The notes below the pieces were generated by a model. The model was not told where the DNA came from and did not search any database. It worked only from the letters and a program-made list of their open reading frames with translations. Positions 211 to 19,533 of a stretch of 64,000 nucleotides of DNA are shown here, one piece after another. The position numbers were made by a program, and so were the translations under genes. Origin of the DNA: Rhodocaloribacter litoris (lineage in GTDB: Bacteria > Bacteroidota > Rhodothermia > Rhodothermales > ISCAR-4553); NCBI RefSeq assembly GCF_011682235.2, contig NZ_CP076718.1, positions 555,758 through 619,757 of the forward strand, read 5' to 3'. Within the stretch, counting starts at the first letter, position 1; the number at the start of each line of letters is the position of its first letter.

Positions 211-997
211 GGCAACGACGTGGCAGGTGAAGAAAAAAAACTGAACCGGGGGGCTGAATGCCCCTTTCAGCCCGCGCACAGCGGAGGCAAGGTGGAGCGC
301 CCGCAGGCGCGGACCTGCACAAGCGCAGCGCGGAAGGGAGCACCGAGGACGAACGACCTTGCTGGAGCGAGCACGGGCGTATCCTGAAAAAGCCCCCCGG
401 TGATGGAAGTAGACAGAGCCCGAGCGTCAGCGAGGACGAGATGGGTTCGGCGGGGCGTCAGCCCGGCCGGTCAGCGGCGGTAGGGGAAGCGGAGAGGTGC
501 GGGCAGCGGCGCGGGGACGGTTCTGTCTCGGCCCGGCGCCGCGTGCGAGGAGCCTTCGGGATCAGTCGCGGAGAGGCGCAGAGGGCCTGGCCGCGCACTC
601 GGCTGTCAGGCAGGCGGCAGGTTGGCCGAGCGGCACGCGGGCCGCATCGTGCGCGAGGATGAGATGGCAGGGCACGGAGCGGATCGGGTGCCGCAAGTTG
701 GGTTGGTGCCGGTTTGCTTTTCCGATGCCGGCGATGGGCCGGCGTGCCCGCTGCGGACGCGCGTGCCAGGACCGCCGCAAGGTTCGTACTGCTCCACTTG
801 TCGCCTGATGCATTGACCAGGGGTAAATTTTTTTCTAGGTTTTGCGCCATGCATCACGGCACCATGGAATAACCTAACGAATGGTCGAACGACCCGCTGA
901 AGCATCTCCTGAGGCCGATAACAACGCAGTGAATACTCGCCCTGACGTGCTATCCTGCATTGAGTCGGGATCAGATGGGATGATGGGAGGAGCGCCG
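211..997. other. Intergenic region upstream of the defence cassette, no gene seen
   Basis: No convincing gene is present; frames that stay open here have shadow-like composition. It contains a small hairpin (arms GGGCTGAA 251-258 and its complement 266-273), a directly repeated block (620-777, listed separately), and an inverted repeat TGATGCAT 806-813 / ATGCATCA 849-856 around an AT-rich stretch. That last piece is the only promoter-like sequence ahead of the methyltransferase gene. An alternative upstream ATG for the methyltransferase lies at 881. Confidence 0.5.
620..777. repeat. Left copy of ~160-bp direct repeat flanking the defence cassette
   Basis: Positions 620-646 match 10223-10249 base for base, and 731-777 match 10341-10387 with few mismatches; the sequence between is related (for example GGGTGCCG in both). 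Both copies have the same orientation and bracket the four-gene cassette. No coding function is apparent. It could be a recombination boundary or a dispersed non-coding repeat. Confidence 0.75.
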
Positions 998-2047
998 TTG
1001 CCTCACCTGCCTGCGCAGCCACCGCAGTGGCAGGCGGGGGATGCGCGCGATCTGTCTTTTCTGCCGGAAGCCAGCGTGGACCTGATCGTCACGTCGCCCC
1101 CGTACTGGCGGCGGCGCAATTATGGGCATCCTAAGCAGCTCGGTCAGGAGCCAACGCCGGAAGCCTACGTCGAGGCGCTCGTCGAGGTGCTCGATGGCTG
1201 GCGGCATGTGCTGCGGCCCCATGCATCCGTCTTCGTCAATCTCGGCGATACATACCGGGATGGGTTCCTGATGGGTGTCCCGGCGCGGTTCGAGGTCGCT
1301 GTGCGCCAGGCCGGCTGGAACGTTGCCAACCACATCGTGTGGACGAAATCCGTTGGGCGACCCGAGCCGCGTCCGTACCGGCTGGCGAGCCGGCATGAGG
1401 CCATCTTTCATCTCACCCTCGCCAGGCGTGCTACGCACTACTTCTTCGACCTTTTCGCCCTCTCCGCCGACCTGGGACGCAGTGCGAACCCGGGCGATGT
1501 CTGGGATCTGCATCCCGCTCGCAGCCGGAGCGATCACATTGCCCCCTTTCCGCCCGAACTGGCCCGCCGCGCCATCCTCGTCGCATGCCCCGAGCGCGTC
1601 TGCACTTCGTGCGGCCGGCCATTCACGAGACGCCTGGCGCCGACGGCCGAGCTCGACCCATCACGCCCTCAGGCCGTGCGGGCTATGGAACTGTTTAGGC
1701 AGCACGGCCTGACCGACGCTCATCTGGCTGCCATTCGCGCTGTGGGCATCTCCGACGCCGGCAAGGGCAAGGCGCTTCAAAACGGAGCCGGGCGTAATGC
1801 GGAGCATGTGAAGGAATTGGCAGCCGAGGCAAAGAAAGCGCTCGGCGGCTACTTCCGCGAATTCACGTTTGCCCCGAAGCGACACGTTGGCTGGGAGGGG
1901 TGTGACTGCGGGGCACCAACGACGCCAGGCACGGTGCTCGACCCCTTCATGGGCAGCGGTACGACACTCCGTGTGGCGCAGGAACTGGGACGCCATGCGC
2001 GTGGCGTTGACCTTGTAGTACCTGATCAACTGAAGACGGTGCATTAG
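998..2047 (+). CDS. Beta-class site-specific DNA methyltransferase (N4-cytosine/N6-adenine type)
   Basis: This is a SAM-dependent DNA methylase of the N4/N6 (Pfam N6_N4_Mtase) family. The catalytic motif IV TSPPYW is at residues 32-37 and the SAM-binding motif DPFMGSGTT at 315-323. The order IV-then-I is typical of the beta class. Between them is a putative zinc ribbon (Cys202, Cys205, Cys302, Cys304). SPPY favours N4-cytosine but does not prove it. I chose the TTG at 998 because GGGAGGAG lies five bases upstream and the frame before it looks non-coding; an ATG at 881 is the alternative. The protein stops shortly after motif I, so the last helix of the fold may be missing. The stop is one base before the helicase gene, so the two are probably co-translated, and the methylase may mark self DNA. 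Confidence 0.85.
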   Translation: MPHLPAQPPQWQAGDARDLSFLPEASVDLIVTSPPYWRRRNYGHPKQLGQEPTPEAYVEALVEVLDGWRHVLRPHASVFVNLGDTYRDGFLMGVPARFEVAVRQAGWNVANHIVWTKSVGRPEPRPYRLASRHEAIFHLTLARRATHYFFDLFALSADLGRSANPGDVWDLHPARSRSDHIAPFPPELARRAILVACPERVCTSCGRPFTRRLAPTAELDPSRPQAVRAMELFRQHGLTDAHLAAIRAVGISDAGKGKALQNGAGRNAEHVKELAAEAKKALGGYFREFTFAPKRHVGWEGCDCGAPTTPGTVLDPFMGSGTTLRVAQELGRHARGVDLVVPDQLKTVH

Positions 2048-2048
2048 G

Positions 2049-5000
2049 TTGCCTTCGCTCAAGAAAAAAGCCATCTCGCTCTATCTCCGAACGGGCTGCC
2101 AGCGCCAGCTTCTGCTGAATCTCTACGGCGATAAGGAGCGACGGGAATTGGCGATGCCGCCCCGGCAGACGGTACGCGCCGGGCTGGGGCTCGTCGGCAA
2201 GGCCGGCTACGACTGGCAGGACGAGAAGGTTAGCGAGCTCGGCACGGTCTTCGGGGCTGAGCACGTGCACATGAATCCGAAGCGGGAGGGAAACCGACCG
2301 GGTACGCTGGACCTCCGGGATGTGTTATCCAGGCTGACGTCGTATCAGTTTGTCGTCGAAGGGCGGTTCGATCCGAACACGGACACGTTCAGGCGGGCCA
2401 TCGGGCTCAACGAGCTGCGGGATCTGCAGGGCGAGCCGCTTGGCGTCGGCAACGCGTTCCCAGATGTAGTGCAGGTGTTGCCCCCAATGCGGGAGCGGGC
2501 AGCATGGGAGCAGGAGATCAAAGAGCTGGGGCCGGGGGCTTCAGGGCTGGAGGTACTGCCGGGCGGCGACGTGCACCCGCTCGACGAACACGATGGGCGG
2601 CTCCGCCTCCGCGTGATCGACATCAAGCAGACGGCCGAACCCGGAGCGCACTACTTCGCCGAGGTCGTCTACTACTCGATGGCGCTAGCGGCGTGGCTCG
2701 TTGAGTACGGGCACACCGACCGCTTCGTCGTCGTTGCGACGCCGGCGGTTTGGCCGGGGAGTTACGAGGCATCGGCGCTCATGGAAGTTCGGGAGCGGTG
2801 CCGCAAAGCGGGGCGCGAGCCGACGGCGGAGGAACTGGCGCTCGCCCTCGAGGATGATCTTGAGATCGCTCCGTTCGACGTCTTCGCGCCGCGTCTGCGG
2901 CGGTTCTTCCGCGAGGAGCTCCCCTATGTGCTCCAGACGCCGTGGGACGAGCTGCCGTGGCACGTCTCCTACGCCTGCGCCGGGTGCGATTTCCTCGGGT
3001 ACCCCTGGAAAGATGCGAGCGGAAAGCTCTTGAACGACCCCCTCCACTGCTGGCCGACGGCGGAGGAGAAGGATCACCTCTCGCGTGTGGCCGGCCTCTC
3101 GCGTGGCGGCGCCAGGCTGCTCCGGCCCGTCGCGGCAAACGTCGCGGCGCTCGCCGGTGTGGAGGCAGACGACGTGGCCTTCAACGCCAGCCCGACGCTC
3201 CGGGCGAAGCGGACGGTCTACCCGCACCGGGCGCGGTCGCTCCAGACAGAGACCGCCGGTGTGATCCCGGATTCGGGCAGCGACGCGCTCATGCCACGCT
3301 GGCCGGACCTACACGTGTACGTCTTCCTGGACTACGACCTTGCCAGCGCCGTGACGGCGGCGTTCAGCCTGCGCGCCTTCTGGAAGGAGCCACTCCCGTT
3401 CGGCTCGGTGCTTGAAACCAAGCGACGGCGCTGGGCAGCCGTGGATAACAAAATGCCTACCGGCTTCCAGGAAGTCTTCCTCGTGGACCGGCGCGACCTC
3501 GACCGCGAACGGGAGGAACTCGTCAAGTTCCTTTGCACCCTGCGCGGCATCCTCGACGAGGTACGCCACCTCGACGACGCCGACGTGGAGGCGGGCCGGC
3601 GCGGCGACCCGGACGAGCCGGAGAAAGCGAAGCGAAGTACGTATCAGATCTACCTCTGGGACGAGGCGCAGCGGAAGCACCTGGTCCGCGTGGTGGGCCG
3701 CCACCTTGGGGCCGTATTGTCGGACACCCGTCTGCGTGATCTGGCCTGGTTGTTTCCTCCACCTGAACTGCTCGTACACGCTGAAGACGCGTCGCACAAG
3801 TCGCCCTTCACGCTCGTCTCGGACGTGGTGCAGAACACAGTGGCGGTGCCCGTCCCCCACCACTACACGTTGCTGGACGTCGTGCAGGCGTATCGCCCCG
3901 ACCCGGTCGCGGCACCGAGCGTACACCCGCTCTACCGGGAGCCGCTGAGCGACCTCATCCCCGGCGAGCGCCTCCACGAAATGTGGACGCACCGGGGCGA
4001 CTGGCTGAACACGGCCAATACGATTCGGGAGACGACCGGGAAGAAGCTCTCCGCGCTGGCCTACGTGGTGAGCCAGCTAGAGCGGGACCTCGGGTCCTAC
4101 CTCACGCGGGCCGCGGCTCCACCGGTGATCCGGCCGCCCCGACGGCTGACGGGTGTGCCGCCGCACAGCGAGCTCTGGCACGAGTACACCCGGCTCAACA
4201 AGTCGCTGGAGGAGCTCGATACGCTCGCCACGCGTGCGATGCCTCCGCATGAACGGGAGGCGCGGTTCAAGAGCGCGCACCTCGTGCGTCGATTGGAGGG
4301 GGCCGAGAAGGCAGAGGCGCTCCGGCATCTCGCGGCGGCGAGCCAGCATGCCCTGCCTCCGGCGGATGACCTCGCCGTCTATACGCTCAGCCCGGACTCA
4401 CGGGAGTTCAACGTACGCCCGCCTGCGCTTGGTTATGCACTCTCGCCACGGAGCCAGCCAGCCTTCCTGCAGGGTGCGGCGTACCCGCTCGTGAAGGACC
4501 ATGACATCCACGTGCCAGCGCGGCTGTCGGGGAGCGTGGCGGAGGTGGGGCTCACGCAGGTGTCCGTTGAGGCGATTGACCGCGTGCGGGGGCTGATCGC
4601 ACTCAAGCAATGGTACACGAACGTCGTTCCTGAGATGGAGGCGGCGGGCGTGGTGGACCTGAGTGCGGACGTGATGCTCGACCCCGTGAGCACGGACTTC
4701 CTCACGAAGAAGGTGCGTGCGACGCTCCTGGGGATCGGGCGACCACCGTCGGCGCAGCATGACGAGGCGACGCTCCGGGCGCTCGGGATCGACGCGCCCG
4801 ACACGACCCCGACGTCGCCAGAGTCGCCGGCTTCGGAATTCCTGTGGCAGGCTCCGGTGCTCGCCGAGACTGAGGTGGACGTTGACGTGGCTGCCGCACG
4901 GGCGGCGCTGGAGGCGTCGGGCGTCCGTCTTAACGATTCGCAGTGGGCCGCGTGGGAGGCGGCCCTCACGCGCCGCCTCGCACTCATCTGGGGGCCACCG

Positions 5001-6473
5001 GGGACGGGCAAGAGTCAGACGTTGCGGGCCGTCGTGGCCGGGGCCGTGTGGCTGGCGCATCGGGCAGGCAAGCCGCTCCGTCTCCTCATCGCCGCCGGTA
5101 CGTACGCGGCCGTGGACAACGTGCTGCTGGGTGCCGATCGGCTCCTCGCCGCGCTCCTGCCGGAGAAGCCCTACCGGCTCGTCCGTATCCAGAGCTCGTA
5201 CAGCGAGCTGCCGGTCGAGCAGGCTGAGGCACACCCGGATGTGGAGACACTCACCGTGAAGACGACGCGGGCACCCGAGGAGGTGCTGACGCTGCAAGGG
5301 CTGCTAGAGCATCCTGAGGAAATCGTCGTCGTGGCCGGGCCGTCGCAGCAGCTGCACAACCTCGCCCTGGCGACGAAGAACAAGTCAAAGCCGCGAGTGT
5401 CAGCTAGGCCGGCCCTGACGCAGCGGCGGTGGTTCGACCTCGTGCTGATCGATGAGGCCTCACAGCTCGACGTGGCCGAGAGCACGCTCGTTGTAAGCAA
5501 GGCGGCCGACGAGGCGGCCTTCGTCCTCGCCGGCGACGACAAGCAACTCCCGCCCATCCACCAGGCGACGCCGCCACAGGACCTCGACCACCTCGTCGGG
5601 AGTGTCTACGGGTATGTGCGCCATCACCACGGTGTAGCGCCATGCCCGCTCCAGGTGAACTACCGCTCGTGCCAGACGCTCGTCGCGTTCACGAAGCAGG
5701 CGGGGTATGATCCGAGGCTGCACGCCCACCACCGGGATCTGCGATTGGCCCTCCTCACGAGCCGCTTCCCCGAAGAGCGCCCCGAGGACTGGCCGGCGAT
5801 GCTGCACTGGACGCCCGGCTGGGCGGCCCTGCTCGCCCCCTCGAAGCCCGCCGCCTGCTTCATCTACGAGGACGAGGTGGCGAGCCAGGCCAACGCCTTC
5901 GAGGCCGACGCCGTGGCCGCGCTGCTCCGGCTGTTCTACGGGCGCGTGGACCGCCAACTCGCCGGCGAGCTCGACGAGGACGGGCGGGAGAAGCCCCTCA
6001 CCGGCCGGCCGCACGACCCCGAAGGATTCTGGAACCGGGCCGTCGGCGTGGTGACGCCGCACCGGGCGCAGATGGGGAAGATCGTAGCGCGGCTGCAAGC
6101 CGCCTTCCCTGACCACGACCCCGGCCTCATCTGGGGTGCCGTGGACACGGTGGAGCGCTTCCAGGGGCAACAGCGGGACGTGATCGTGGCCTCGTTCGGG
6201 CTCGGCGACCCGGACCTGATCCGGGCGGAGGACGAGTTCCTCTACAGCCTCAACCGCTTCAACGTGATGGCGTCGCGGGCACGGGCCAAGCTCATCGTCT
6301 TCACCACCCGCTCGCTCGTGGACCACCTCTCGAACGACGCGGACGTGCTGGAAGAGTCGCGGCTGTTGAAGAACTTCGCCGAGTCGTTCTGCAAGGACCC
6401 GCAGCTATTGACGCTGGGGTATCTGGATGAGGGTAGGCTCGTCGAGCGGGCCGGGGTGTTGAGGACGCGCTAA
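2049..6473 (+). CDS. Fe-S PD-(D/E)XK nuclease fused to SF1 (Dna2/UPF1-like) helicase
   Basis: This 1474-residue protein appears to join a RecB/Cas4/TM0106-like nuclease to a superfamily 1 helicase. Near the N-terminus, Cys17 pairs with Cys310, Cys313 and Cys334 in the spacing of a Cas4/AddB-type 4Fe-4S cluster. D191-I-K193 is the core of a PD-(D/E)XK site. The C-terminal third has Walker A GPPGTGKS (982-989), Walker B IDEAS (D1135, E1136), motif III GDDKQLPP, and the VERFQGQQRDV and NVMASRARAKL motifs of DNA2/UPF1-like helicases. The middle 350-950 is unassigned. It starts at TTG directly after the methylase stop. With the methylase it resembles a restriction-modification pair in which this is the DNA-degrading partner. 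Helicase and nuclease calls are strong; the defence role is inference. Confidence 0.85.
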   Translation: MPSLKKKAISLYLRTGCQRQLLLNLYGDKERRELAMPPRQTVRAGLGLVGKAGYDWQDEKVSELGTVFGAEHVHMNPKREGNRPGTLDLRDVLSRLTSYQFVVEGRFDPNTDTFRRAIGLNELRDLQGEPLGVGNAFPDVVQVLPPMRERAAWEQEIKELGPGASGLEVLPGGDVHPLDEHDGRLRLRVIDIKQTAEPGAHYFAEVVYYSMALAAWLVEYGHTDRFVVVATPAVWPGSYEASALMEVRERCRKAGREPTAEELALALEDDLEIAPFDVFAPRLRRFFREELPYVLQTPWDELPWHVSYACAGCDFLGYPWKDASGKLLNDPLHCWPTAEEKDHLSRVAGLSRGGARLLRPVAANVAALAGVEADDVAFNASPTLRAKRTVYPHRARSLQTETAGVIPDSGSDALMPRWPDLHVYVFLDYDLASAVTAAFSLRAFWKEPLPFGSVLETKRRRWAAVDNKMPTGFQEVFLVDRRDLDREREELVKFLCTLRGILDEVRHLDDADVEAGRRGDPDEPEKAKRSTYQIYLWDEAQRKHLVRVVGRHLGAVLSDTRLRDLAWLFPPPELLVHAEDASHKSPFTLVSDVVQNTVAVPVPHHYTLLDVVQAYRPDPVAAPSVHPLYREPLSDLIPGERLHEMWTHRGDWLNTANTIRETTGKKLSALAYVVSQLERDLGSYLTRAAAPPVIRPPRRLTGVPPHSELWHEYTRLNKSLEELDTLATRAMPPHEREARFKSAHLVRRLEGAEKAEALRHLAAASQHALPPADDLAVYTLSPDSREFNVRPPALGYALSPRSQPAFLQGAAYPLVKDHDIHVPARLSGSVAEVGLTQVSVEAIDRVRGLIALKQWYTNVVPEMEAAGVVDLSADVMLDPVSTDFLTKKVRATLLGIGRPPSAQHDEATLRALGIDAPDTTPTSPESPASEFLWQAPVLAETEVDVDVAAARAALEASGVRLNDSQWAAWEAALTRRLALIWGPPGTGKSQTLRAVVAGAVWLAHRAGKPLRLLIAAGTYAAVDNVLLGADRLLAALLPEKPYRLVRIQSSYSELPVEQAEAHPDVETLTVKTTRAPEEVLTLQGLLEHPEEIVVVAGPSQQLHNLALATKNKSKPRVSARPALTQRRWFDLVLIDEASQLDVAESTLVVSKAADEAAFVLAGDDKQLPPIHQATPPQDLDHLVGSVYGYVRHHHGVAPCPLQVNYRSCQTLVAFTKQAGYDPRLHAHHRDLRLALLTSRFPEERPEDWPAMLHWTPGWAALLAPSKPAACFIYEDEVASQANAFEADAVAALLRLFYGRVDRQLAGELDEDGREKPLTGRPHDPEGFWNRAVGVVTPHRAQMGKIVARLQAAFPDHDPGLIWGAVDTVERFQGQQRDVIVASFGLGDPDLIRAEDEFLYSLNRFNVMASRARAKLIVFTTRSLVDHLSNDADVLEESRLLKNFAESFCKDPQLLTLGYLDEGRLVERAGVLRTR

Positions 6474-6501
6474 GGCTGCTCATTAACAGCAATAGAAACA
6501 C

Positions 6502-8868
6502 ATGGAAAGCTTCGACTTCAAGGAGATTGCTGAAGTACTCAACTTCAGCCGTCACGCTACCATTAACACAGAGCCTGCGGAGGCAGAGGAGGGCCAATGG
6601 ACCCTCTACCGAGGTCACTACCGTGTACACCTGCATGAGGATACCTTCAATGTGCTCTGGCTCCACTCCAGAATTACTAAGGTGGCGCTGGAGAAAGTAA
6701 TGAGCCGTTACAACCACCCAAAGACGCATTTGGTGCATCCGGCTGGTAAAGCTGTCTCGGAACGCCTGCGCCGGTGGCGTAAACTTTACGATCGTGTGCA
6801 GGGCCCATACATACCTCGGGATTACTTGCGCTCCTTCATGCGCGACGAACTGGACGCCTATGTTCATCGCATGGTCGAGCAGGCCCCTCAATATTATGTT
6901 GACCCGAGAATCGGATCTTATCTAAGACATCCTAATCCCGTCGAGACATTCCTGGCAAAGCCGGCAAGCGAAGATTCCGGTGCCCTCGGTATCGTACTGG
7001 CTGAGCCTGGTCAGGGCAAGACCTATATGAGCCGGCATATCGTATACCGCCTTGCCTCTTTACATGGAGCGGATCTCGTTCCGGTCATGGTAGACGCTAC
7101 GCAATGGCAATCCATGCCAGAGCAGGATCTCAGCGATCTCTGGAAGACGATTGTTCATTCATTTCGGTACCATCATGCCCCAATCGGTTGGGTCGAAGGT
7201 CATGAGGAAGCTTTCCTCGATGCCGCCTGCAAAGCCGATTTGTTTAGAATCGTTTTTGATGGGTTTGACGAGTTCATTCTCCGCAATCGAGGTCGTGTTG
7301 ACCCAATGGAAGTGCTCGAAGTGCTTTCGGATCTGGCGAAGCGAACCGGCACGCGCGTCGTTATTACCTCCCGAACATCGTTTTGGAATACCAACCTTTC
7401 GAAGGAGGAGGCGGACGATTTCATAGAGCGAACAGGCTCCGAAGTCTTCCCGATGAAGCCATTTGACCTTTCTAAAGCTCGGGATTACTTCGGGATTAGA
7501 TTCAAAGAAGAGAAGGAACGAGACCAGCGGGTTGAGCGCGCCGCACAACTCTATCACGCCCTGGAAAAGCAAAACAAAAAACTGGCAGGCCGTGGCTTCG
7601 TGCTCAACCTTGTTGCTGACGCTGTACAGCGTGGTGATCCTATCTCTACGCCGAGCAATCAAATGCAGATCTTACCCTGGCTTATGATGACTCTTTGCCA
7701 GCGTGAGGAGCTTCGCCAAGAACTACCTCTGTCGGCGGAAGAGCAGATGCAGATGATGCAACTGTTTGCCAGCACCGCTGCTGAAGGCCTCGGACATTCG
7801 ACAGATGTATTGGACCTTGTGTTGCTGGATACCCGTGATGATTTGGATGATTCTACCCGATTACGGTGCATTGAGAAGTTTAAAAGCCACCCACTGCTTT
7901 CATACAAGCCTGAGACTGACCTGTGGGATTTCAAAGAAGAACAAATTGGGACGTTTCTGCTCGCGCAGGAGATTATGGAGTGCCCGCTGCCAAAGCTAGC
8001 TGGTTTTGCTGAGAAGCTTGGTTTGCACACCCGGCTAGGCACCCTCCAGGACCTTGCCTCTACTATCGTGGACCTTCTCGTTCGCATGGACAGCGGGAGC
8101 GAAAAAATCAGCCGCATCATCTCGGCGCTTAGTCGCGGTGACCATAGTAAGGAAGCTTCACCAGGACCACGCCTCCTTGCGAGCCGCATTGCCTTGCTCA
8201 CCGTTGATGCCCTACGCCACCAAGGCCTCCCGAAGAAAGATCGCACGGAGATGCTACTCAGGTTAGTTGGTGACCCCATAAGTGGTCTCCAGTTTTCTGG
8301 CACGAATACTATAGCCAGCTATGACTTCTCCGGAATTACCTTTCGCAACTGCCGCTTCACCAATGTGACCTTCGCTCGCTGTGAGTTTGACAGCAATACC
8401 TCTTTCGAGAATTGCAGCTTTTCCGATGGCGTTCGTATCGTGCGCTCCAAGGGTTTTCGCAGCACTTCCATTGATGAGTCTTGCTTCTTGGACGCGGAAA
8501 GCAAGCGATGGCTGCGGGGTATTCAAGTAAGCGAGGGAGAGCGTGCCTACTCTGATGAAGACCTTCGCGCAGACATCAACAGTGTCGTGGATAAATTCAT
8601 TAGTAAAGGGGGGATGACGCTGAAGACCGTGAAAGAACCTGATCTAAAAAAAGGACCTATTAGCGCGTCACCCCATCAAAAGGTAATCCTTGATGCGTTG
8701 CTCGGATCGGTGCTGGAAACGCACCACCTATCGGGCCTTTCGGCCAAAGGACTGAATGTGCGCGAAGATGCGGCCGATGCAGTCCGTTTCTATGCTGCTA
8801 ACAACGTATATACAGGGCCGCTCCAAGACGTCTATGTGAAGCTTCAGAACAAGCTGACAGCTGCCTAG
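6502..8868 (+). CDS. NACHT-family STAND NTPase with C-terminal pentapeptide repeats
   Basis: This 788-residue protein carries a P-loop EPGQGKT (168-174) and a NACHT-type Walker B ending DGFDE (253-257), followed by a VVITSR sensor strand. These mark a STAND NTPase related to bacterial anti-phage NACHT (Avs-like) proteins. Residues about 608-650 show pentapeptide-repeat spacing (FRNCRF, FARCEF, FENCSF), a possible target-sensing or effector scaffold. The N-terminal 150 residues match no domain I know. The gene is visibly AT-richer than its neighbours, which suggests a separate origin. It follows the helicase gene by 28 bases on the same strand and precedes the DUF4062 gene by 14. I infer a sensing or abortive-infection role. 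Confidence 0.8.
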   Translation: MESFDFKEIAEVLNFSRHATINTEPAEAEEGQWTLYRGHYRVHLHEDTFNVLWLHSRITKVALEKVMSRYNHPKTHLVHPAGKAVSERLRRWRKLYDRVQGPYIPRDYLRSFMRDELDAYVHRMVEQAPQYYVDPRIGSYLRHPNPVETFLAKPASEDSGALGIVLAEPGQGKTYMSRHIVYRLASLHGADLVPVMVDATQWQSMPEQDLSDLWKTIVHSFRYHHAPIGWVEGHEEAFLDAACKADLFRIVFDGFDEFILRNRGRVDPMEVLEVLSDLAKRTGTRVVITSRTSFWNTNLSKEEADDFIERTGSEVFPMKPFDLSKARDYFGIRFKEEKERDQRVERAAQLYHALEKQNKKLAGRGFVLNLVADAVQRGDPISTPSNQMQILPWLMMTLCQREELRQELPLSAEEQMQMMQLFASTAAEGLGHSTDVLDLVLLDTRDDLDDSTRLRCIEKFKSHPLLSYKPETDLWDFKEEQIGTFLLAQEIMECPLPKLAGFAEKLGLHTRLGTLQDLASTIVDLLVRMDSGSEKISRIISALSRGDHSKEASPGPRLLASRIALLTVDALRHQGLPKKDRTEMLLRLVGDPISGLQFSGTNTIASYDFSGITFRNCRFTNVTFARCEFDSNTSFENCSFSDGVRIVRSKGFRSTSIDESCFLDAESKRWLRGIQVSEGERAYSDEDLRADINSVVDKFISKGGMTLKTVKEPDLKKGPISASPHQKVILDALLGSVLETHHLSGLSAKGLNVREDAADAVRFYAANNVYTGPLQDVYVKLQNKLTAA

Positions 8869-8882
8869 ACGTTGGATGCTAT

Positions 8883-10052
8883 ATGAAACCGAAGGTATTT
8901 GTGAGCTCAGTAATGGAGGGGTTCGAGCCCTTCCGCAAAGCCGCGCGTACAGGCATTGAGGCTGCTGGAAGTGAGCCAATGATGGCTGAGGATTGGCCCT
9001 CGCTTGGGAATTCGCCGCGGACGGCATGTCTGGACCTCGTCGCCTCGTCCGACGCCCTCATCCTGATTATTGGCGAGCGCGGCGGGTGGACGGCTCCGTC
9101 TGGGTTGCTTGTTGTGGAGGAAGAGTGGCAGGAGGCGCAGCAGCGCAAGCTCCCCGTCCGCGTGTTCGTCCAAGAAGGCGTAACGCGGGATGCAGAGGCC
9201 GAGCGGCTGGTAGCCAAAGTGAGTGACTACGTGGCGGGCTACTTCCGCCGGACCTTTACGGACCCTGACTCGCTAGCCGCCGAAGTCCAGCAAGCCGTAA
9301 AATCTATCGAACCTTTACCCGCACATGCCATGACACCCGATGCCGATGCTCTGCGGTCTTTTGCAAGAGCGGTCGCCGATTCTCAAGCTGGTTGGGCTGC
9401 AGACGAGAAGACGCTCCGGTTTGTTCTGGCCCCAGAGCGGGCCGGTGAAGTGATTGACCCGCGACGGCTGGACGATCCAGCTTTCCACCATGCCGTAATG
9501 ACGGCAGCGCAACACCCGAACCATCGTCTCATCGACTACGGTCAGCCGGTAGTGCCGCGTGTTCAGGGGACGGCCCTTGTGCTGGAGCGAATGGCACCAC
9601 AGCAGAACTGGCGGGAAGCGCGGCCGGCGCGGATTGAGGTGCACGAACATGGTCTGATCCTGATTGACGCACCATTGGAGACAAAGTCTGACCTGAGCGG
9701 GACAGGGACAATTCCCTCGCATATCCTCAACGAGGATCGTCTGGAAGGAGTGCTCACGGCAGTGTTCCAGTTTGCCGGGACCATTTACGCGCAGGAAGAT
9801 CCGTACCTTCGTTTCGAGCGGCTGCAGGTGGATATTGCGCTGGCAGGCGTTCACGGTGCCGTATTGGAGCGTAATCCACAGCCGCGGTCTAGCTATACTA
9901 TCCCCGATGCATGGATGCAAGGGATGCACGGCCCGGCCGAACCACTCACGCCGCTCCCAGCCCCACGCGTTGTGAACCGACGCGACCTTGAGCACCCGGA
10001 TGACGAAGTCTCCCGCCTGATGGCCTATCTACGCCGGGCACTTGCTTCTTAA
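8883..10052 (+). CDS. DUF4062 (TIR-like) domain protein
   Basis: Residues 2-95 match the DUF4062 pattern: KVFVSS at the start, a conserved FR..A loop, a D-x-SDALILIIGERGG strand and a V..E..EA helix. DUF4062 is a flavodoxin/TIR-like fold found beside NACHT and other NTPases, where it may act as an effector or protein-interaction module. The remaining 290 residues are unassigned. No NADase glutamate can be assigned with confidence. It is the last gene of the cassette, 14 bases after the NACHT stop with an ATG at 8883. Pairing of NACHT and DUF4062 proteins supports a joint signalling role, but this is inference. Confidence 0.8.
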   Translation: MKPKVFVSSVMEGFEPFRKAARTGIEAAGSEPMMAEDWPSLGNSPRTACLDLVASSDALILIIGERGGWTAPSGLLVVEEEWQEAQQRKLPVRVFVQEGVTRDAEAERLVAKVSDYVAGYFRRTFTDPDSLAAEVQQAVKSIEPLPAHAMTPDADALRSFARAVADSQAGWAADEKTLRFVLAPERAGEVIDPRRLDDPAFHHAVMTAAQHPNHRLIDYGQPVVPRVQGTALVLERMAPQQNWREARPARIEVHEHGLILIDAPLETKSDLSGTGTIPSHILNEDRLEGVLTAVFQFAGTIYAQEDPYLRFERLQVDIALAGVHGAVLERNPQPRSSYTIPDAWMQGMHGPAEPLTPLPAPRVVNRRDLEHPDDEVSRLMAYLRRALAS

Positions 10053-10090: not shown

Positions 10091-10225
10091 ATGAACGATA
10101 CCCTTCCCGACATCCCACCCCCAGGCGCGTTGCTCGACGACCTGCGACGGTTGATCGACAAGACGCGCGCAGCAGTGGTCAGCACGCTCACCGCCGTGCT
10201 GACCATGCTCTACGGGCGCATCGGT
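10091..10225 (+). pseudogene. Truncated DUF1016 (YhcG-like) N-terminal fragment
   Basis: From an ATG at 10091 the frame gives about 45 residues resembling the start of DUF1016 proteins (LLDDLRRLID, then LTMLYGRIG; the family normally reads LLYWxIG). DUF1016 proteins are PD-(D/E)XK-containing nucleases common in accessory DNA and normally run to about 350 residues. Similarity stops where the ~160-bp repeat begins at 10223. The open frame continues to 10324 but only as translated repeat. I read this as a gene cut off by the event that placed the repeat. Confidence 0.6.
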
Positions 10226-10387
10226 TGGCCGAGCGGCACGCGGGCCGCACCGTGCGAGAGGATGAGGGGTCATGTCACAGGGCAGACCGGGTGCCGCGAG
10301 ACGATCAGGTCCTGGGCCGCGTGATGCGGCCACACCTCCTGCGATAGGCCGGCGTGCCCGCCGCCGACAGGCGTGCCAGGGCCGCCG
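10223..10387. repeat. Right copy of ~160-bp direct repeat flanking the defence cassette
   Basis: Same orientation as 620-777; the first 27 bases are identical, and the closing block 10341-10387 matches 731-777. It begins exactly where the DUF1016 remnant ends. Downstream (10388-10620) I see no gene, only a palindromic inverted repeat AGCGCGCT (10528-10535 and 10545-10552). Confidence 0.75.
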
Positions 10388-10622
10388 TGCCGGAGGGAAG
10401 GCCGGGCAGTGTGCGTGTGCGTAGATGCTTCAGGCAGCGACGGCCGAAGGCCTGCGGCCCCGGACGCGGGGCCAGGAAAAAAAGAAGGCCCGCCGGCAAA
10501 CCCTTGCAAGGAAAACCGACAGGCCAGAGCGCGCTCCCGTTAAAAGCGCGCTGTATCAGTAAGGTAGACTCGAGCGTGGCGATTTGTCAATCAGCAGCCA
10601 CGAATGAAGGCGAAATGCACAG

Positions 10623-10644
10623 TTTGTAGAACATTTGTAGAACG
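10623..10644. repeat. Tandem 11-mer, possible integrase arm sites near tRNA-Asn
   Basis: TTTGTAGAACA occurs twice in tandem (second copy ends in G). The unit length, head-to-tail arrangement and position just outside a tRNA terminator match the TTTCGACAACA tandem inside the tRNA-Leu element (13364-13389 and 21856-21881). I infer arm-type sites of a related integrase. No integrase for this end is inside the window. Confidence 0.45.
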
Positions 10645-10700: not shown

Positions 10701-10775
10701 TGGCTCCCCGGGCAGGACTCGAACCTGCAACCCTGCGGTTAACAGCCGCATGCTCTACCATTGAGCTACCGAGGA
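10701..10775 (-). tRNA. tRNA-Asn (anticodon GTT)
   Basis: The minus strand folds as a cloverleaf: acceptor stem TCCTCGG/CCGGGGA, discriminator G, D-arm with GGTAGAGCA, anticodon loop CTGTTAA giving GTT, and a canonical T-arm with GGTTCGAGTCC. The 3' CCA is genome-encoded. It sits at the border between the accessory region to its left and chromosomal genes to its right, and tRNA 3' ends are common integration targets. Confidence 0.95.
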
Positions 10776-13219: not shown

Positions 13220-13304
13220 GCCCAGGTGGCGGAAGTGGTAGACGCGCTAGATTCAGGATCTAGTGGCCATTGCGGCCGTGGAGGTTCGAGTCCTCTCCTG
13301 GGCA
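13220..13304 (+). tRNA. tRNA-Leu (anticodon CAG)
   Basis: An 85-base cloverleaf with a long variable arm, acceptor stem GCCCAGG/CCTGGGC, discriminator A, anticodon stem CTAGA/TCTAG with loop TTCAGGA giving CAG, and T-loop GTTCGAGTC. CCA is not encoded. Its last bases form the attachment core of the integrative element to its right; the tRNA stays intact after insertion. Confidence 0.95.
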
Positions 13305-13305
13305 C
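13293..13305. repeat. attL core (13-bp direct repeat in tRNA-Leu 3' end)
   Basis: CTCTCCTGGGCAC, identical to 21994-22006. It covers the T-arm and acceptor 3' strand of tRNA-Leu. Confidence 0.85.
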
Positions 13306-13320
13306 ATACACTTCCCTCGG

Positions 13321-13363
13321 AAGCCGTTGAGTCTCAATGACTTAGCGGCTTCTCTTTTTTCCC
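13321..13363 (+). terminator. tRNA-Leu terminator supplied by the element
   Basis: The hairpin at 13321-13351 (AAGCCG/CGGCTT outer arms) is followed by a T-rich run. It closely resembles the hairpin at 22022-22052 beyond attR, so the element brings a substitute terminator when it separates the tRNA from its own. Confidence 0.75.
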
Positions 13364-13389
13364 TTTCGACAACATTTCGACAACATTTT
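13364..13389. repeat. Left arm-type repeat of the element
   Basis: Two tandem TTTCGACAACA units plus TTTT; the 26 bases are identical to 21856-21881 in the same orientation. Probable integrase arm-binding sites. Confidence 0.6.
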
Positions 13390-13400
13390 GCCCCGAAACG

Positions 13401-13439
13401 TAAAAGCCCCGGCAACCTGATGGCAGGCTGCCAGGGCTT
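13401..13439 (-). terminator. Terminator of the element's leftward operon
   Basis: An imperfect stem (AAGCCC at 13404-13409, GGGCTT at 13434-13439) followed on the minus strand by TTTTA. It lies downstream of the last leftward gene and would stop transcription before it reaches the tRNA. Confidence 0.6.
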
Positions 13440-13592
13440 CCGGCTCACGTCCCAGAAGGGCGTGTGCGGCATGATACGCGATCATCTCCTCCGCGATCCC
13501 GGCACCACCCCCCACCCCCCCTTGATTTGCACGCGTGTGCGTACTGCCCCCGCGCCGGTCCCCCCGGCCAGGTCGCAGAGATTTTACCCCCC

Positions 13593-14003
13593 CTACCGGT
13601 ACACCAGCCGGCGCAGGTCCACGGCTCCCAATGTTTGCGTGCAAACACTCACCGCCGGGTCGTCCGCCACCGGCGTCGCCCGCAGCAGCTCGATGGCCTC
13701 CCCGGCAAGGCGCACCTCGGACGCCCCGCCGCCGATGCGGCTTGTGTCCATCGTGGTTACACCGCCGCGCCAGTGCTTAAAGGTGCGCTCGGTGCTGATA
13801 CTTGAAACGTTGCAAGTATCGGCTCTCATTTTTGCTACGAAGGGGTGACTCACCCTGCACCGCCGGGCAATCTCCCGGTCACTCCACCGGCGCCACTCCT
13901 CGTCCTGGAGCAACGTCATGACGGCGCGGCGCTTGTCGGCGCCCGTGCGGCGCAGGCCGTGCTCGGCGTTGGCGCCGACGCTGTGGAGGATGGCGTCACG
14001 CCG
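13593..14003 (-). pseudogene. N-terminally truncated ParB-like phage/plasmid protein
   Basis: The minus-strand frame gives 136 residues beginning RRDAILHSVGANAEHGLRRT and including WSDREIARRCRVSHPFV. I recognise this as the C-terminal half of ParB-N-domain proteins of phages and plasmids: a conserved GANAxHGLRRTxADKRRAV block followed by a helix-turn-helix. The N-terminal ParB nuclease-like domain is absent, and no start codon exists in frame before the block; the first ATG is at 13919, within it. The upstream open frame is shadow-like. It looks like a remnant left by replacement of the gene's 5' half, unless an unusual start is used. Confidence 0.5.
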
Positions 14004-14100
14004 GGACGGGTCCTTTGCTGTAGAGCCCGTGCACGCAGGCCATGAGGATTTTTGCACAGTTTGCGTCTGGACAAGAGGATTTTTGCCGCTCCCGGCCGCC

Positions 14101-14460
14101 TCAAACCTCGACGACACGCCGCACGGTGGCCCTCGCCGGCAGGATGCTCCGCAGGCCGTCGCCCCGCGTCCCGGCCGGGACGTCGTAGCGCCACCGCGGC
14201 GGGTCCGGCCACCGGCACAGCCCGCCGCCGGGCCGGTGCGGCCAGTCGTAGGCCGCACAGCGGCACACGGGCACCGTGCGGCACGCGTAGCGGGTAAACA
14301 GCCTCTGATTGCCGCGTGTGTGGCCCGCGTGCGGCGCACATAGCTGCTCCGGGTGGCCCCACATGGCCCAGGCCCGGCACCGCTCCCCGGCCCGCGGGTG
14401 GCCCTCCGGGTACACGTGGCGGCAACGTCGCAGGTTTTGTGCTCGTCGTGAGTAGGCCAT
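14101..14460 (-). CDS. Cysteine-rich small phage-type protein
   Basis: A 119-residue protein with a pattern of Cys and His residues (RRCRHVYPEGHPRAGERCRAW, split across the first 30 residues; later CRTVPVCRCAAYDWPHRPGG and LCRWPD). The spacing suggests one or two zinc fingers. Similar short proteins with a YxWPHRPGGGxCxWP signature occur in prophage-like elements of other bacteria, but no function is known to me. It lies in the leftward series of the element, 25 bases after the preceding gene. Confidence 0.6.
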   Translation of the reverse strand: MAYSRRAQNLRRCRHVYPEGHPRAGERCRAWAMWGHPEQLCAPHAGHTRGNQRLFTRYACRTVPVCRCAAYDWPHRPGGGLCRWPDPPRWRYDVPAGTRGDGLRSILPARATVRRVVEV

Positions 14461-14485
14461 ACGCCGAGTGTGTTTTCCGGGTTAA

Positions 14486-14701
14486 TCAGCCCCATCCGGG
14501 CGGCGTCTCCAGCGCTCGCAGGAAGGCGTCCCAGAAGGCCGCCTCCTCCCAGGTCACCAGCTCCTCGACCAGCCGGTCCGTGGCCCGCTCGCCGGCCTCG
14601 ATCCACGCCTCCCAGTCCCATCCGTCAGGGTCGAGCCGGGCCACCAGCGCACGGGGCACCTGGTCGGTGAGCTTCAGGTCAGGGTCTTCCATCGCTTTCA
14701 T
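14486..14701 (-). CDS. Small acidic hypothetical protein
   Basis: A 71-residue acidic protein rich in Trp and Glu (WDWEAW, EELVTWEEAAFW). Its composition is protein-like and unlike the shadow frames around it. I recognise no domain. It lies between the resolvase region and the Cys-rich gene in the same direction. Confidence 0.5.
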   Translation of the reverse strand: MKAMEDPDLKLTDQVPRALVARLDPDGWDWEAWIEAGERATDRLVEELVTWEEAAFWDAFLRALETPPGWG

Positions 14702-14792
14702 ATTTCGCCTCTACCGAGTTCTCGTTTCACGGGGGTACTCTCCCCCGGATCGCAGGAGATCGCGCTATCTGGACGCGTAACGCGTCCCTGAG

Positions 14793-14896
14793 CGTCACGG
14801 GCCGAACCACGACTCAAAGTCCTCCAGCCGTAGCACGACCAGGTCCCCCGTCATGGTTGCGCCCCCGCTCGTGCAGGATGGCCACCGGCACAGCCC
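14793..14896 (-). pseudogene. Duplicated 3' end of the resolvase-like gene
   Basis: This stretch repeats, with mismatches and indels, the last ~100 bases of the gene at 14921-15223, including the stop and the codons for WFGP. There is no 5' part. It is a leftover of a second, diverged copy, which suggests an earlier allele was displaced here. Just left of it is the palindrome GGACGCGT/ACGCGTCC at 14771-14787. Confidence 0.65.
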
Positions 14897-14904
14897 GCCG
14901 CCGG

Positions 14905-14920
14905 TGTTTGCGCGCAAACA
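14905..14920. promoter_or_regulatory. Perfect 16-bp palindrome, possible operator
   Basis: TGTTTGCGCGCAAACA is a perfect palindrome in the gap after the resolvase gene. A one-base variant, TGTTTGCGTGCAAACA, occurs at 13632-13647. Two such sites in one element suggest a regulator-binding site; which protein binds is unknown. Confidence 0.35.
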
Positions 14921-15223
14921 TCAGGGGCCGAACCACGACTCGAAGTCGGCCAGCCGCAGCACCACCAGGTCCCGGTCATGGTCGCGCCCTTTCTGGTGGA
15001 GGATGGCGACGGGTAGTTGATCCTCCCGTGCGGCGGCCTCGGCCTGGCACACGGCGTCCTCGATCCAGGCGGGCAGCCGGGTGCGGTGCTTGATCTCGAT
15101 GGCGAGCCAGCGGTGATCTACGTCGGGCGCGTCGCCACGGCTCCGGCCCGTCACGGGTACGCGGCGGCCATTCAGGCGAGCGGCCACGGCGCGTTCGGTG
15201 CGTTTCCACGATTTTTCAGGCAT
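14921..15223 (-). CDS. PD-(D/E)XK resolvase/nuclease-like protein
   Basis: A 100-residue protein with the layout of small Holliday-junction-resolvase-like nucleases: a basic N-terminus (KSWKRTERAVAARLNGRR), then D-APDVDHRWLAIEIKHR, where D..ExK is the metal site. The start at 15223 follows GGAGGA with good spacing; the frame could also begin further upstream at 15274. Such proteins cut branched DNA in phage and plasmid replication. It is in the leftward operon. Confidence 0.7.
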   Translation of the reverse strand: MPEKSWKRTERAVAARLNGRRVPVTGRSRGDAPDVDHRWLAIEIKHRTRLPAWIEDAVCQAEAAAREDQLPVAILHQKGRDHDRDLVVLRLADFESWFGP

Positions 15224-15290
15224 CCGCTTCCTCCGGTTAACAAACGGGCCTCGCAGGCGATGAACGCCTCTCACAAGTCCGCCTTATCGG

Positions 15291-15824
15291 CTAAGAATCG
15301 GCTTCCTCGGTTAACAAATAGCGCCGGCTCAGGGCCTCCATCGTCTCCCGGCCGAAGGCGCGGTAAAGCTCCCTCACCAGGTCGAAGGCCACGTCCAGAC
15401 TCGGGCCCCGGTCGGCGCTCCGCAGGACCTCCGCGATGCTGTGGTAAAACTCGACGGGCTCCTCGACACGCCCCCAGCCCTCCAGGTCGAAGGGTGCACG
15501 CGGCAGGTAGACCGATGCGTACCAGAACCAGGCGCACAGGAAGCCTTCTTCCAGGTCGCCGCCGAAGGCGTCGTCGAAGTAGGAGAGCGGCTCGATGCAG
15601 GCTCGCCACCGCTCCGGGTCCGCACCCTCGGGCACGGCGTCGAGCATGGCATCGAGGATGTCCTGGAGCAGGAGCCGGTCACGCAGCAGGTCCCGGTGTC
15701 GTCGCAGCGCCTCGACCACGTCGTCGGGCAGCGGCTCGCGATACTCGACCACCAGCCGGTGCCGCTCTCGTCGTAGCCGGCAGCCCAGGTCACGGGCGCG
15801 GCGGATGGCGTCGGTCAGGGTCAT
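15291..15824 (-). CDS. Hypothetical protein with TubC-docking-like N-terminus
   Basis: A 177-residue protein. The first ~55 residues (RLRRERHRLVVEYREPLPDD, then LRRHRDLLRDRLLL) resemble the short alpha-beta TubC N-terminal-like segment seen at the start of many phage/plasmid proteins next to primases. The rest is acidic and aromatic with no known motif. It starts 12 bases after the primase stop and is probably co-translated with it. Function unknown. Confidence 0.6.
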   Translation of the reverse strand: MTLTDAIRRARDLGCRLRRERHRLVVEYREPLPDDVVEALRRHRDLLRDRLLLQDILDAMLDAVPEGADPERWRACIEPLSYFDDAFGGDLEEGFLCAWFWYASVYLPRAPFDLEGWGRVEEPVEFYHSIAEVLRSADRGPSLDVAFDLVRELYRAFGRETMEALSRRYLLTEEADS

Positions 15825-15835
15825 GTCACACTCTC

Positions 15836-18832: not shown

Positions 18833-18996
18833 CGGGCGGCCCTCCCCGCCGTCAGCCGGCGGCGCTTGATCTCACGGGCGAGGATGCGGGCCACGTAGGC
18901 GCGGGCGCGGGCCAGGTCCTCGGCCGTCAGCGGCTCAAACCGGCGGCGCTCCGGCGGCAGGGCGGGCGGCGCAGCCGGGTGGATGCTGGCGGTCAT
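18829..18996 (-). CDS. Small basic protein coupled to the primase gene
   Basis: A 55-residue basic protein (ARAYVARILAREIKRRR). Its ATG overlaps the stop of the excisionase-like gene and its stop overlaps the primase ATG, both as ATGA, so translation is coupled. It may be a helical DNA-binding or adaptor peptide. No family recognised; support comes from gene packing. Confidence 0.55.
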   Translation of the reverse strand: MTASIHPAAPPALPPERRRFEPLTAEDLARARAYVARILAREIKRRRLTAGRAAR

Positions 18997-19295
18997 CGCT
19001 CGGCCCTCCCGCCGACCAGGTGCCGGCCGATGAACGTCTCCAGGTCCTCCCGGCGATAGAAAATCATCGTGCCCACCTTCGCGTACGGTAGCTCGCCGGA
19101 GTCCCGCCACCTCTGGAGCGTGGCGCGGGAGACGCCGAGCAGGCGAATGGCCTCGGCGTTCGAGATGTAGGCCAGCGGCTCCGGATTGCGGGCCTCGGCG
19201 GTGCGGGCGTCGGGGCGCAGGACCTCCTCCAGGTCCTGCCGGATGGCCGCCCTCAGGTCGTCCAGGACGGCCGGGTCGAGTGCGATGATCTGCAT
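18993..19295 (-). CDS. Excisionase-like MerR-type helix-turn-helix protein
   Basis: About 100 residues. The second half is a winged HTH_17 domain: ISNAEAIRLLGVSRATLQRW, then a short hairpin and IFYRREDLETFI. This family includes excisionases that bend attachment-site DNA, and repressors of integrative elements. The start at ATG 19295 fits the domain better than the frame's first ATG at 19373. Directly upstream is a palindrome-rich control region. Confidence 0.8.
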   Translation of the reverse strand: MQIIALDPAVLDDLRAAIRQDLEEVLRPDARTAEARNPEPLAYISNAEAIRLLGVSRATLQRWRDSGELPYAKVGTMIFYRREDLETFIGRHLVGGRAER

Positions 19296-19354
19296 AGCGA
19301 CAGCGCTCTGGTGATCGATACGGCGCCATGATCGCCATGCAGAAGGGCCTCTAC

Positions 19355-19392
19355 TGGCCAATGCATTGGCCAATCACTGGCCAGTTTGGCCA
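19355..19392. promoter_or_regulatory. Operator-like palindrome upstream of the excisionase operon
   Basis: An 18-bp perfect palindrome TGGCCAATGCATTGGCCA (19355-19372) is followed by two more TGGCCA units (19378, 19387), giving four within 38 bases. It lies just upstream of the excisionase/primase operon. It is probably bound by an element regulator, possibly the HTH protein itself. Confidence 0.55.
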
Positions 19393-19428
19393 AAAAGGTT
19401 AAGATTTGATGAAGTGCGGGCTCACCTC

Positions 19429-19533
19429 GATGTCCTCCAGCGGCGGACGGTGCGCGGTCCTTGACGGCGGCCGAAATCTCAACATTTCTCAACAAGCTCA
19501 CCCTGATGTCCTCCAGCGGCGGACGGTGCGCGG
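19429..19533. repeat. 29-bp direct repeat covering the HTH tail of the next gene
   Basis: Positions 19429-19457 and 19505-19533 are identical over 29 bases. The right copy codes for the last residues of the 376-frame protein (PRTVRRWRTS); the left copy sits beyond its stop. It is a duplicated or recombined gene end. Confidence 0.7.

What the first reader, a model, noticed from the sequence alone, without database searches (positions are those of the whole stretch)
998..10052. Four-gene cassette: methylase, Fe-S nuclease-helicase, NACHT, DUF4062
Seen: four tightly spaced same-strand genes (gaps of 1, 28 and 14 bases) encoding a beta-class methylase, a 1474-residue Cas4-like nuclease fused to an SF1 helicase, a NACHT NTPase with pentapeptide repeats and a DUF4062 protein. 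Known: each family is linked to anti-phage defence, but I know no named system with this combination. Inference: the first pair acts as restriction-modification while the second pair acts as a NACHT-triggered back-up or abortive module; they may be one system or two neighbours.
Basis: partly seen in the sequence, partly recalled or inferred. Interest (0 to 1): 0.85.

Follow-up and report, generated by a model that had tools for sequence, protein, structure and literature searches.

The report
Restriction-modification pair beside NACHT–NADase pair
Four adjacent genes in a mobile bacterial defence island turn out to be two modules: a conserved but apparently unnamed DNA-protecting/DNA-destroying pair (methylase plus nuclease-helicase) and, behind it, a probable cell-suicide pair (NACHT sensor plus NAD-destroying enzyme) that is not found with the first pair anywhere else we looked.

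Summary
In detail: four co-directional genes (gaps 1, 28, 14 nt) encode a beta-class DNA methylase, a 1474-aa Cas4/RecB-like nuclease–SF1 helicase, a NACHT–pentapeptide protein and a DUF4062 protein. It is not one conserved four-gene system. The methylase/nuclease-helicase pair is a real unit: in 14 of 14 related loci the helicase abuts a methylase (one locus is truncated), with at least four methylase types swapped in. None of 14 sister helicases has one. The NACHT and DUF4062 genes occur in only 1 of the 14 (this window), and their GC3 (0.57, 0.63) departs from the helicase (0.85) and host. No PADLOC or NCBIfam model covers the pair, so it is best called a new variant of restriction-modification, type III-like in logic. 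DUF4062 is a TIR-like NADase family (Swarozyc), and the catalytic Glu is kept. DUF4062–NACHT fusions occur in Chloroflexota and human TEP1, so the second pair is probably a split NACHT–NADase abortive module. The block lies in a 27.5-kb element at tRNA-Asn, between two 166-nt repeats found nowhere else in the genome. A PrrC-like link between the two modules is possible but unproven.

The parts
620..777 (.). Left copy of a ~166-nt imperfect direct repeat that flanks the four-gene block
   Evidence: 76% identical over 166 nt to 10223-10387; only these two copies in the 4.5-Mb genome (E 2.8e-23)
881..2047 (+). Beta-class DNA methylase, 388 aa (or 349 aa from the TTG at 998); motif order TSPPYW, then a target-recognition-like insert, then FMGSGTT
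   Evidence: Pfam N6_N4_Mtase 1.6e-31; PADLOC MTase_II PDLC03316 401.7 bits; 66% identical to the Herpetosiphon partner
2049..6473 (+). 1474-aa nuclease-helicase, the restriction-type partner
   Evidence: Full-length relatives at 26-67% identity, each abutting a methylase
2049..3083 (+). Residues 1-345: Cas4/RecB-like PD-(D/E)xK nuclease with four-Cys (Fe-S type) set C17, C310, C313, C334
   Evidence: Invariant residues in 12 family members; profile match to TM0106/PDDEXK_1 family
4926..6320 (+). Residues 960-1424: SF1 (Upf1/Dna2-like AAA_11/AAA_12) helicase; Walker A GPPGTGK, DEASQ, GDDKQ, VDTVERFQGQ, SRA motifs intact
   Evidence: Pfam AAA_11 4.9e-20, AAA_12 4.8e-17; PDB best match DNA2 nuclease-helicase 1e-9
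6502..8868 (+). 788-aa NACHT NTPase (NACHT ~6997-7494) with pentapeptide repeats (~8329-8433) and a conserved C-terminal tail; GC3 0.565
   Evidence: Pfam; full-length relative in genome G103, 28%; GC3
8883..10052 (+). 389-aa DUF4062 (TIR-like NADase family) protein; putative catalytic Glu81 (codon 9123-9125); GC3 0.633
   Evidence: Pfam DUF4062 3.8e-15; weak match to KpSwz 10wc, E 0.025; E81 invariant in 3 relatives
10223..10387 (.). Right copy of the flanking direct repeat
10622..10644 (+). Possible integrase arm-type repeat (GTTTGTAGAAC..TTGTAGAACG), 21/23 to a site near the far end of the element
10701..10775 (-). tRNA-Asn(GTT), the integration target
   Evidence: ARAGORN and Rfam
10702..10717 (+). 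16-nt att-like core GGCTCCCCGGGCAGGA (3' end of tRNA-Asn); its only other genomic copy is 27.5 kb to the left (G000:C1:538940), outside the window
   Evidence: exactly two copies in the genome, control pattern none

Best explanation
Two adjacent defence modules share one slot of a tRNA-Asn integrative element. Module 1 (methylase + nuclease-helicase) works as a restriction-modification pair. The methylase marks host DNA. The SF1 helicase with its Fe-S Cas4/RecB-like nuclease loads on and degrades DNA that lacks the mark. Specificity probably comes from the methylase, as with Mod in type III systems, because different methylases are swapped in while the helicase stays. Module 2 (NACHT + DUF4062) is probably an abortive-infection pair: the NACHT protein senses a phage cue, oligomerises, and switches on the TIR-like DUF4062 enzyme, which destroys NAD+. 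Shown here: the conserved pairing, intact catalytic residues, lack of co-occurrence of the two modules, and the element boundaries. Inferred: enzymatic activities, phage protection, where specificity lies, and NACHT control of the NADase.
For: Methylase abuts the helicase in 14/14 related loci, with at least four methylase types in both gene orders, against 0/14 sister helicases; NACHT/DUF4062 in 1/14. Helicase tree: beta-methylase clade 100/100, alpha-type clade 99/99. Nuclease, Fe-S and helicase residues invariant. The Herpetosiphon pair keeps the same 1-nt gap and ends without NACHT/DUF4062. GC3: methylase 0.71, helicase 0.85, NACHT 0.57, DUF4062 0.63. DUF4062 as TIR-like NADase: PMC13174449; catalytic-type Glu kept. 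DUF4062 fused to NACHT/NB-ARC in Chloroflexota. Element: tRNA-Asn 16-nt repeat pair, tyrosine recombinase (2.6e-32), IS elements and a broken RM operon.
Against: The four genes are tightly spaced on one strand with no terminator-like site at the module junction on the + strand, and the whole block is bounded by a repeat pair unique in the genome, so they may have moved, and may work, together. The closest NACHT relative also sits directly behind a nuclease-helicase, but without DUF4062. DUF4062 proteins closest to this one stand alone, so NACHT-DUF4062 coupling in this locus is not itself conserved. No phage assay exists.
Confidence: 0.66

Rival explanations
1. One functional system of the PrrC/EcoprrI type: the methylase/nuclease-helicase is the first line, and the NACHT/DUF4062 pair is a guard kept silent by it and released as an NADase when a phage blocks restriction.
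For: Tight co-directional spacing and shared flanking repeats. A NACHT relative lies 46 nt behind a ResIII/T5orf172 helicase-nuclease in G103. Another DUF4062 subfamily (~500 aa) sits inside type I and III RM operons, e.g. HsdR-DUF4062-HsdM-HsdS and Res-DUF4062-Mod. PrrC is silenced by a linked type I RM enzyme and released by a phage inhibitor (PMC2610378).
Against: 0 of 13 other copies of the pair carry NACHT or DUF4062. The relatives of this particular DUF4062 are not in RM operons. GC3 differs sharply between the modules.
Confidence: 0.15
2. Three independent units in a defence-island pile-up: the RM-like pair, a solo NACHT-pentapeptide sensor-effector, and a solo Swarozyc-like DUF4062, adjacent by chance.
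For: The NACHT relative in G103 has no DUF4062; DUF4062 relatives in Rhizobium, Methylobacterium and Cupriavidus plasmids have no NACHT; KpSwz acts alone (PMC13174449).
Against: DUF4062-NACHT/NB-ARC fusions in Chloroflexota and in human TEP1/NWD1 show that the two domains work together elsewhere; 14-nt gap.
Confidence: 0.25
3. The nuclease-helicase is a repair enzyme and the methylase beside it is an unrelated epigenetic or orphan enzyme.
For: Sister TM0106-type nuclease-helicases lack methylases, and this methylase family also exists without the helicase.
Against: Fourteen of fourteen pairings with at least four methylase types, and occurrence in plasmids, virus/prophage contigs and integrative elements, fit restriction rather than repair.
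Confidence: 0.1

Closest known systems
Type III restriction-modification (Mod/Res)
   Same: A beta-class N4/N6 methylase plus a separate large helicase-nuclease, two adjacent genes
   Different: Helicase is SF1 (AAA_11/AAA_12) with an N-terminal Fe-S RecB/Cas4-like nuclease, not an SF2 ResIII helicase with C-terminal nuclease; partner methylases of several classes, including D12, occur
UvrD-Cas4 fusions near Mod/Res or Dcm (PMC5704561)
   Same: Cas4-like nuclease plus SF1 helicase linked to DNA methylases and assigned to defence
   Different: That family is UvrD-type (3'-5'); here the helicase is Upf1/Dna2-type, the nuclease is N-terminal, and it pairs one-to-one with a methylase
TM0106 family RecB-like nuclease-helicases (TIGR03491/PF12705 with AAA_11/AAA_12) and DpdJ
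   Same: Same overall architecture; profile match probability 100, E 6.7e-60; DpdJ is the best PADLOC match of the helicase (partial)
   Different: The sister proteins tested have no methylase nearby (0/14)
Swarozyc (DUF4062 TIR-like NADase; PDB 10wc)
   Same: DUF4062 domain with the conserved Glu
   Different: Weak similarity (E 0.025), C-terminal region without significant match, NACHT gene next door; KpSwz acts alone on the phage portal
TEP1/NWD1/NPHP3 (DUF4062-NACHT fusions)
   Same: DUF4062 coupled to a NACHT ATPase
   Different: Here they are two separate bacterial genes, with pentapeptide repeats in the NACHT protein
PrrC/EcoprrI
   Same: An abortive effector next to RM genes
   Different: Effector is a putative NADase with a NACHT regulator, and the linkage is not conserved

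Membership tests
Restriction-modification pair (any type) | DNA methylase gene consistently paired with a DNA-cleaving partner | tested here: met
   14/14 related loci, 0/14 sister controls; exception: M. extorquens L012 with a frameshifted helicase and no methylase
Restriction-modification pair (any type) | Cleavage blocked by the partner's methylation | not testable with these tools
   needs bench work
Type III RM | SF2 ResIII helicase with C-terminal endonuclease | tested here: not met
   Pfam shows SF1 AAA_11/AAA_12 and no ResIII; the nuclease motifs are N-terminal
Type III RM | Beta-class Mod methylase supplying specificity | tested here: inconclusive
   Beta-class order is present here, but other copies use alpha-like or D12 methylases; specificity untested
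TM0106-type RecB nuclease-helicase superfamily | RecB/Cas4-like nuclease with four-Cys cluster plus Upf1-like SF1 helicase | tested here: met
   TIGR03491 itself does not reach significance in this protein
Dpd system (DpdJ) | DpdJ within a 7-deazapurine modification cluster | tested here: inconclusive
   Partial helicase match only; the immediate neighbours are the methylase, NACHT and DUF4062; the rest of the genome was not searched for Dpd genes
Swarozyc | DUF4062 domain with catalytic Glu (KpSwz E97) | tested here: met
   Pfam 3.8e-15; Glu81 aligned and invariant; the E97 mapping assumes the deposited chain is the E97A mutant
Swarozyc | KpSwz-like auxiliary, portal-binding domain | tested here: inconclusive
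   No significant match beyond residue ~134; the structure model failed (pLDDT 34)
Bacterial NACHT/STAND defence proteins | NACHT P-loop domain plus sensor repeats | tested here: met
   NACHT and pentapeptide matches, with the relative at 1.9e-9; no PADLOC match
PrrC-like RM guard | Conserved linkage of the effector to this RM family | tested here: not met
   NACHT/DUF4062 in only 1 of 14 loci

The most novel reading that the evidence does not exclude
A four-gene, two-tier immune operon: an unnamed SF1/Fe-S restriction-modification pair physically guards a split TEP1-like NACHT-NADase, so that phage anti-restriction proteins trigger NAD+ loss, as a PrrC-style guard with a new chemistry.
Probability: 0.12. 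Interest if true: 0.85.

Novelty: new variant of a known kind. Interest (0 to 1): 0.55.

Why it matters
The methylase/nuclease-helicase pair appears to be a widespread, unnamed restriction-modification type (the window's own phylum, Chloroflexota, Alphaproteobacteria, virus/prophage contigs) in which one nuclease-helicase core takes different methylases. That makes it testable whether specificity can be exchanged by swapping the methylase. The second pair is a bacterial two-gene counterpart of the DUF4062–NACHT architecture of human TEP1/NWD1, a simple model for how a NACHT protein switches on a TIR-like NADase.

Tried and rejected
Single four-gene system: rejected on co-occurrence (1/14). Known named system: no PADLOC or NCBIfam model covers the helicase full length; only partial helicase matches such as DpdJ, MkoA and PLuB. 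Integron cassette: the flanking repeats lack paired RYYYAAC/GTTRRRY cores, fold no better or only somewhat better than shuffles (z -0.6 and -1.9), and exist in only two copies. RNA element at the repeats: no Rfam match. Structure of DUF4062: single-sequence model useless (pLDDT 34). Structure of helicase residues 1-950: moderate (pLDDT 69.5), no significant PDB match; viral library matches to YprB/RNase-H-like giant-virus proteins at 1.7e-6 to 2e-4 hint at an RNase H-like middle domain but were not pursued. NACHT relatives in plasmids, phages, virus contigs and 301 Chloroflexota: none, so the co-occurrence statistics for NACHT rest on few relatives. Literature searches found no paper describing a methylase plus Upf1/Dna2-like Fe-S nuclease-helicase system.

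Full report
Observation. The four genes are real and laid out as described: methylase 881-2047 (or from TTG 998), nuclease-helicase 2049-6473, NACHT-pentapeptide 6502-8868, DUF4062 8883-10052, all on the + strand with gaps of 1, 28 and 14 nt. Family matches are N6_N4_Mtase, AAA_11/AAA_12, NACHT/Pentapeptide_3 and DUF4062. In this protein NACHT alone is just below its curated cut-off; its full-length relative in genome G103 passes it clearly (1.9e-9).

The nuclease-helicase. Twelve aligned family members (relatives 26-67% identical to the window protein) keep four cysteines (C17, C310, C313, C334), the PD-(D/E)xK-type residues D139, D191-x-K193 and E205-xxx-Y209, and all SF1 helicase motifs checked. 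Profile comparison with the TM0106-type RecB nuclease-helicases gives probability 100 and E 6.7e-60; members of that family hit PF12705 PDDEXK_1 and TIGR03491. The best solved relative by sequence is the DNA2 nuclease-helicase (1e-9).

The first pair is a unit. Relatives were collected from genome contigs, plasmids, virus contigs and whole genomes. In 14 of 14 loci the helicase abuts or overlaps a methylase: beta-class upstream (window, Herpetosiphon, G583, G629, one virus contig); permuted alpha-like downstream, mostly convergent (Rhizobium, Bradyrhizobium, G142, three virus contigs); a large ~700-aa methylase (G442, one virus contig); a D12 methylase (G011). One of the 14 (L051) lacks the N-terminal part of the helicase. 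In 14 sister TM0106-type helicases examined the same way, none has a methylase within the stretch. One further relative, on the M. extorquens AM1 megaplasmid, is frameshifted and has no methylase. The helicase tree separates the beta-type and alpha-type users with strong support, so partner exchange is old and rare rather than constant. The methylase family itself also occurs without the helicase.

The second pair is not part of that unit. No NACHT or DUF4062 relative lies beside any other copy of the pair. GC3 is 0.71 (methylase), 0.85 (helicase), 0.57 (NACHT) and 0.63 (DUF4062), against 0.86-0.90 in two other genes of the window. The only full-length NACHT relative found (G103, 28%) lies 46 nt behind a ResIII/T5orf172 helicase-nuclease and has no DUF4062. 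The closest DUF4062 relatives stand alone.

What the second pair probably does. DUF4062 was recently shown to be a TIR-like NADase family: the one-gene Swarozyc system in bacteria and TEP1 in humans, where it lies next to a NACHT ATPase (PMC13174449). The window protein aligns with KpSwz only weakly (E 0.025), but its Glu81 falls at the catalytic position and is invariant in three relatives; this mapping assumes that the deposited KpSwz chain is the E97A mutant described in the paper. DUF4062 fused to NACHT or NB-ARC occurs in Chloroflexota. A split NACHT-NADase pair is therefore the best reading of genes 3 and 4, but control of one by the other is inference.

The genomic setting. The block lies in an integrative element at tRNA-Asn. 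A 16-nt sequence at the tRNA 3' end has exactly one other copy in the genome, 27.5 kb to the left (G000:C1:538940 and 566459), with TGTAGAAC-type repeats near both ends. Inside are a tyrosine recombinase, IS elements, a phage lysozyme gene and an interrupted HsdR_N/N6_Mtase restriction gene; RecQ lies just outside. Within the element a 166-nt, 76% identical direct repeat flanks just the four genes and occurs nowhere else in the genome. The four genes may therefore have moved as a block in this lineage, or been stacked at the same place.

Known or new. PADLOC 2.0.0 and NCBIfam have no full-length model for the helicase, and paper searches found no description of this pairing. The nearest precedents are type III RM and the UvrD-Cas4 fusions that sit beside Mod/Res or Dcm (PMC5704561). 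I rate the first pair a new variant of restriction-modification. The four-gene arrangement is a neighbourhood, with a minority chance (about 0.15) that it works as a PrrC-like guarded system (PMC2610378).

Limits. Samples are small, genomes in the handle collection are unnamed, some virus contigs may be prophage fragments, the NACHT family is so rare that its associations rest on two loci, and all activities are inferred from sequence.

Noticed in passing
L145:1820-3301; L143:3799-5403; L151, L153-L155, L157, L158: A different ~500-aa DUF4062 subfamily sits inside restriction operons: HsdR-DUF4062-HsdM-HsdS (G182), Res-DUF4062-Mod (G211), HsdM overlapping DUF4062 by 4 nt (G152, G110, G181, G126), and beside HsdS or HsdR (G163, G207). 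It looks like a recurrent RM-embedded NADase and deserves its own study.
   Followed up: partly
L084, L087, L091, L097: Chloroflexota encode DUF4062 fused to NACHT or NB-ARC ATPases, the architecture of human TEP1/NWD1.
   Followed up: partly
L057:2815-12052: In G103 the only full-length relative of the window's NACHT follows an MmeI-like methylase fragment and a ResIII/T5orf172 helicase-nuclease, in the same order as the window but with unrelated enzymes.
   Followed up: partly
window 620-777 and 10223-10387: A 166-nt direct repeat, two copies in the genome, flanks exactly the four genes; its origin is unexplained.
   Followed up: partly
L068:5497-9468: The same element carries an HsdR_N/N6_Mtase restriction gene in pieces, with transposase genes nearby.
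   Followed up: no
window 13220-21820: A second tyrosine recombinase (20591-21820, with Arm-DNA-bind_5) and a 998-aa primase/helicase-like gene (by eye; no Pfam match) lie to the right of tRNA-Leu (13220), probably another integrated element.
   Followed up: no
L015:9549-18240: In Azospirillum a 768-aa TM0106-type nuclease ORF (6.2e-14) overlaps a 2211-aa helicase ORF that may be DpdJ (size and family resemblance only, not tested), suggesting the Dpd protein shares this origin.
   Followed up: no
L012:11965-16387: Methylorubrum extorquens AM1 carries a frameshifted copy of the nuclease-helicase without a methylase.
   Followed up: no
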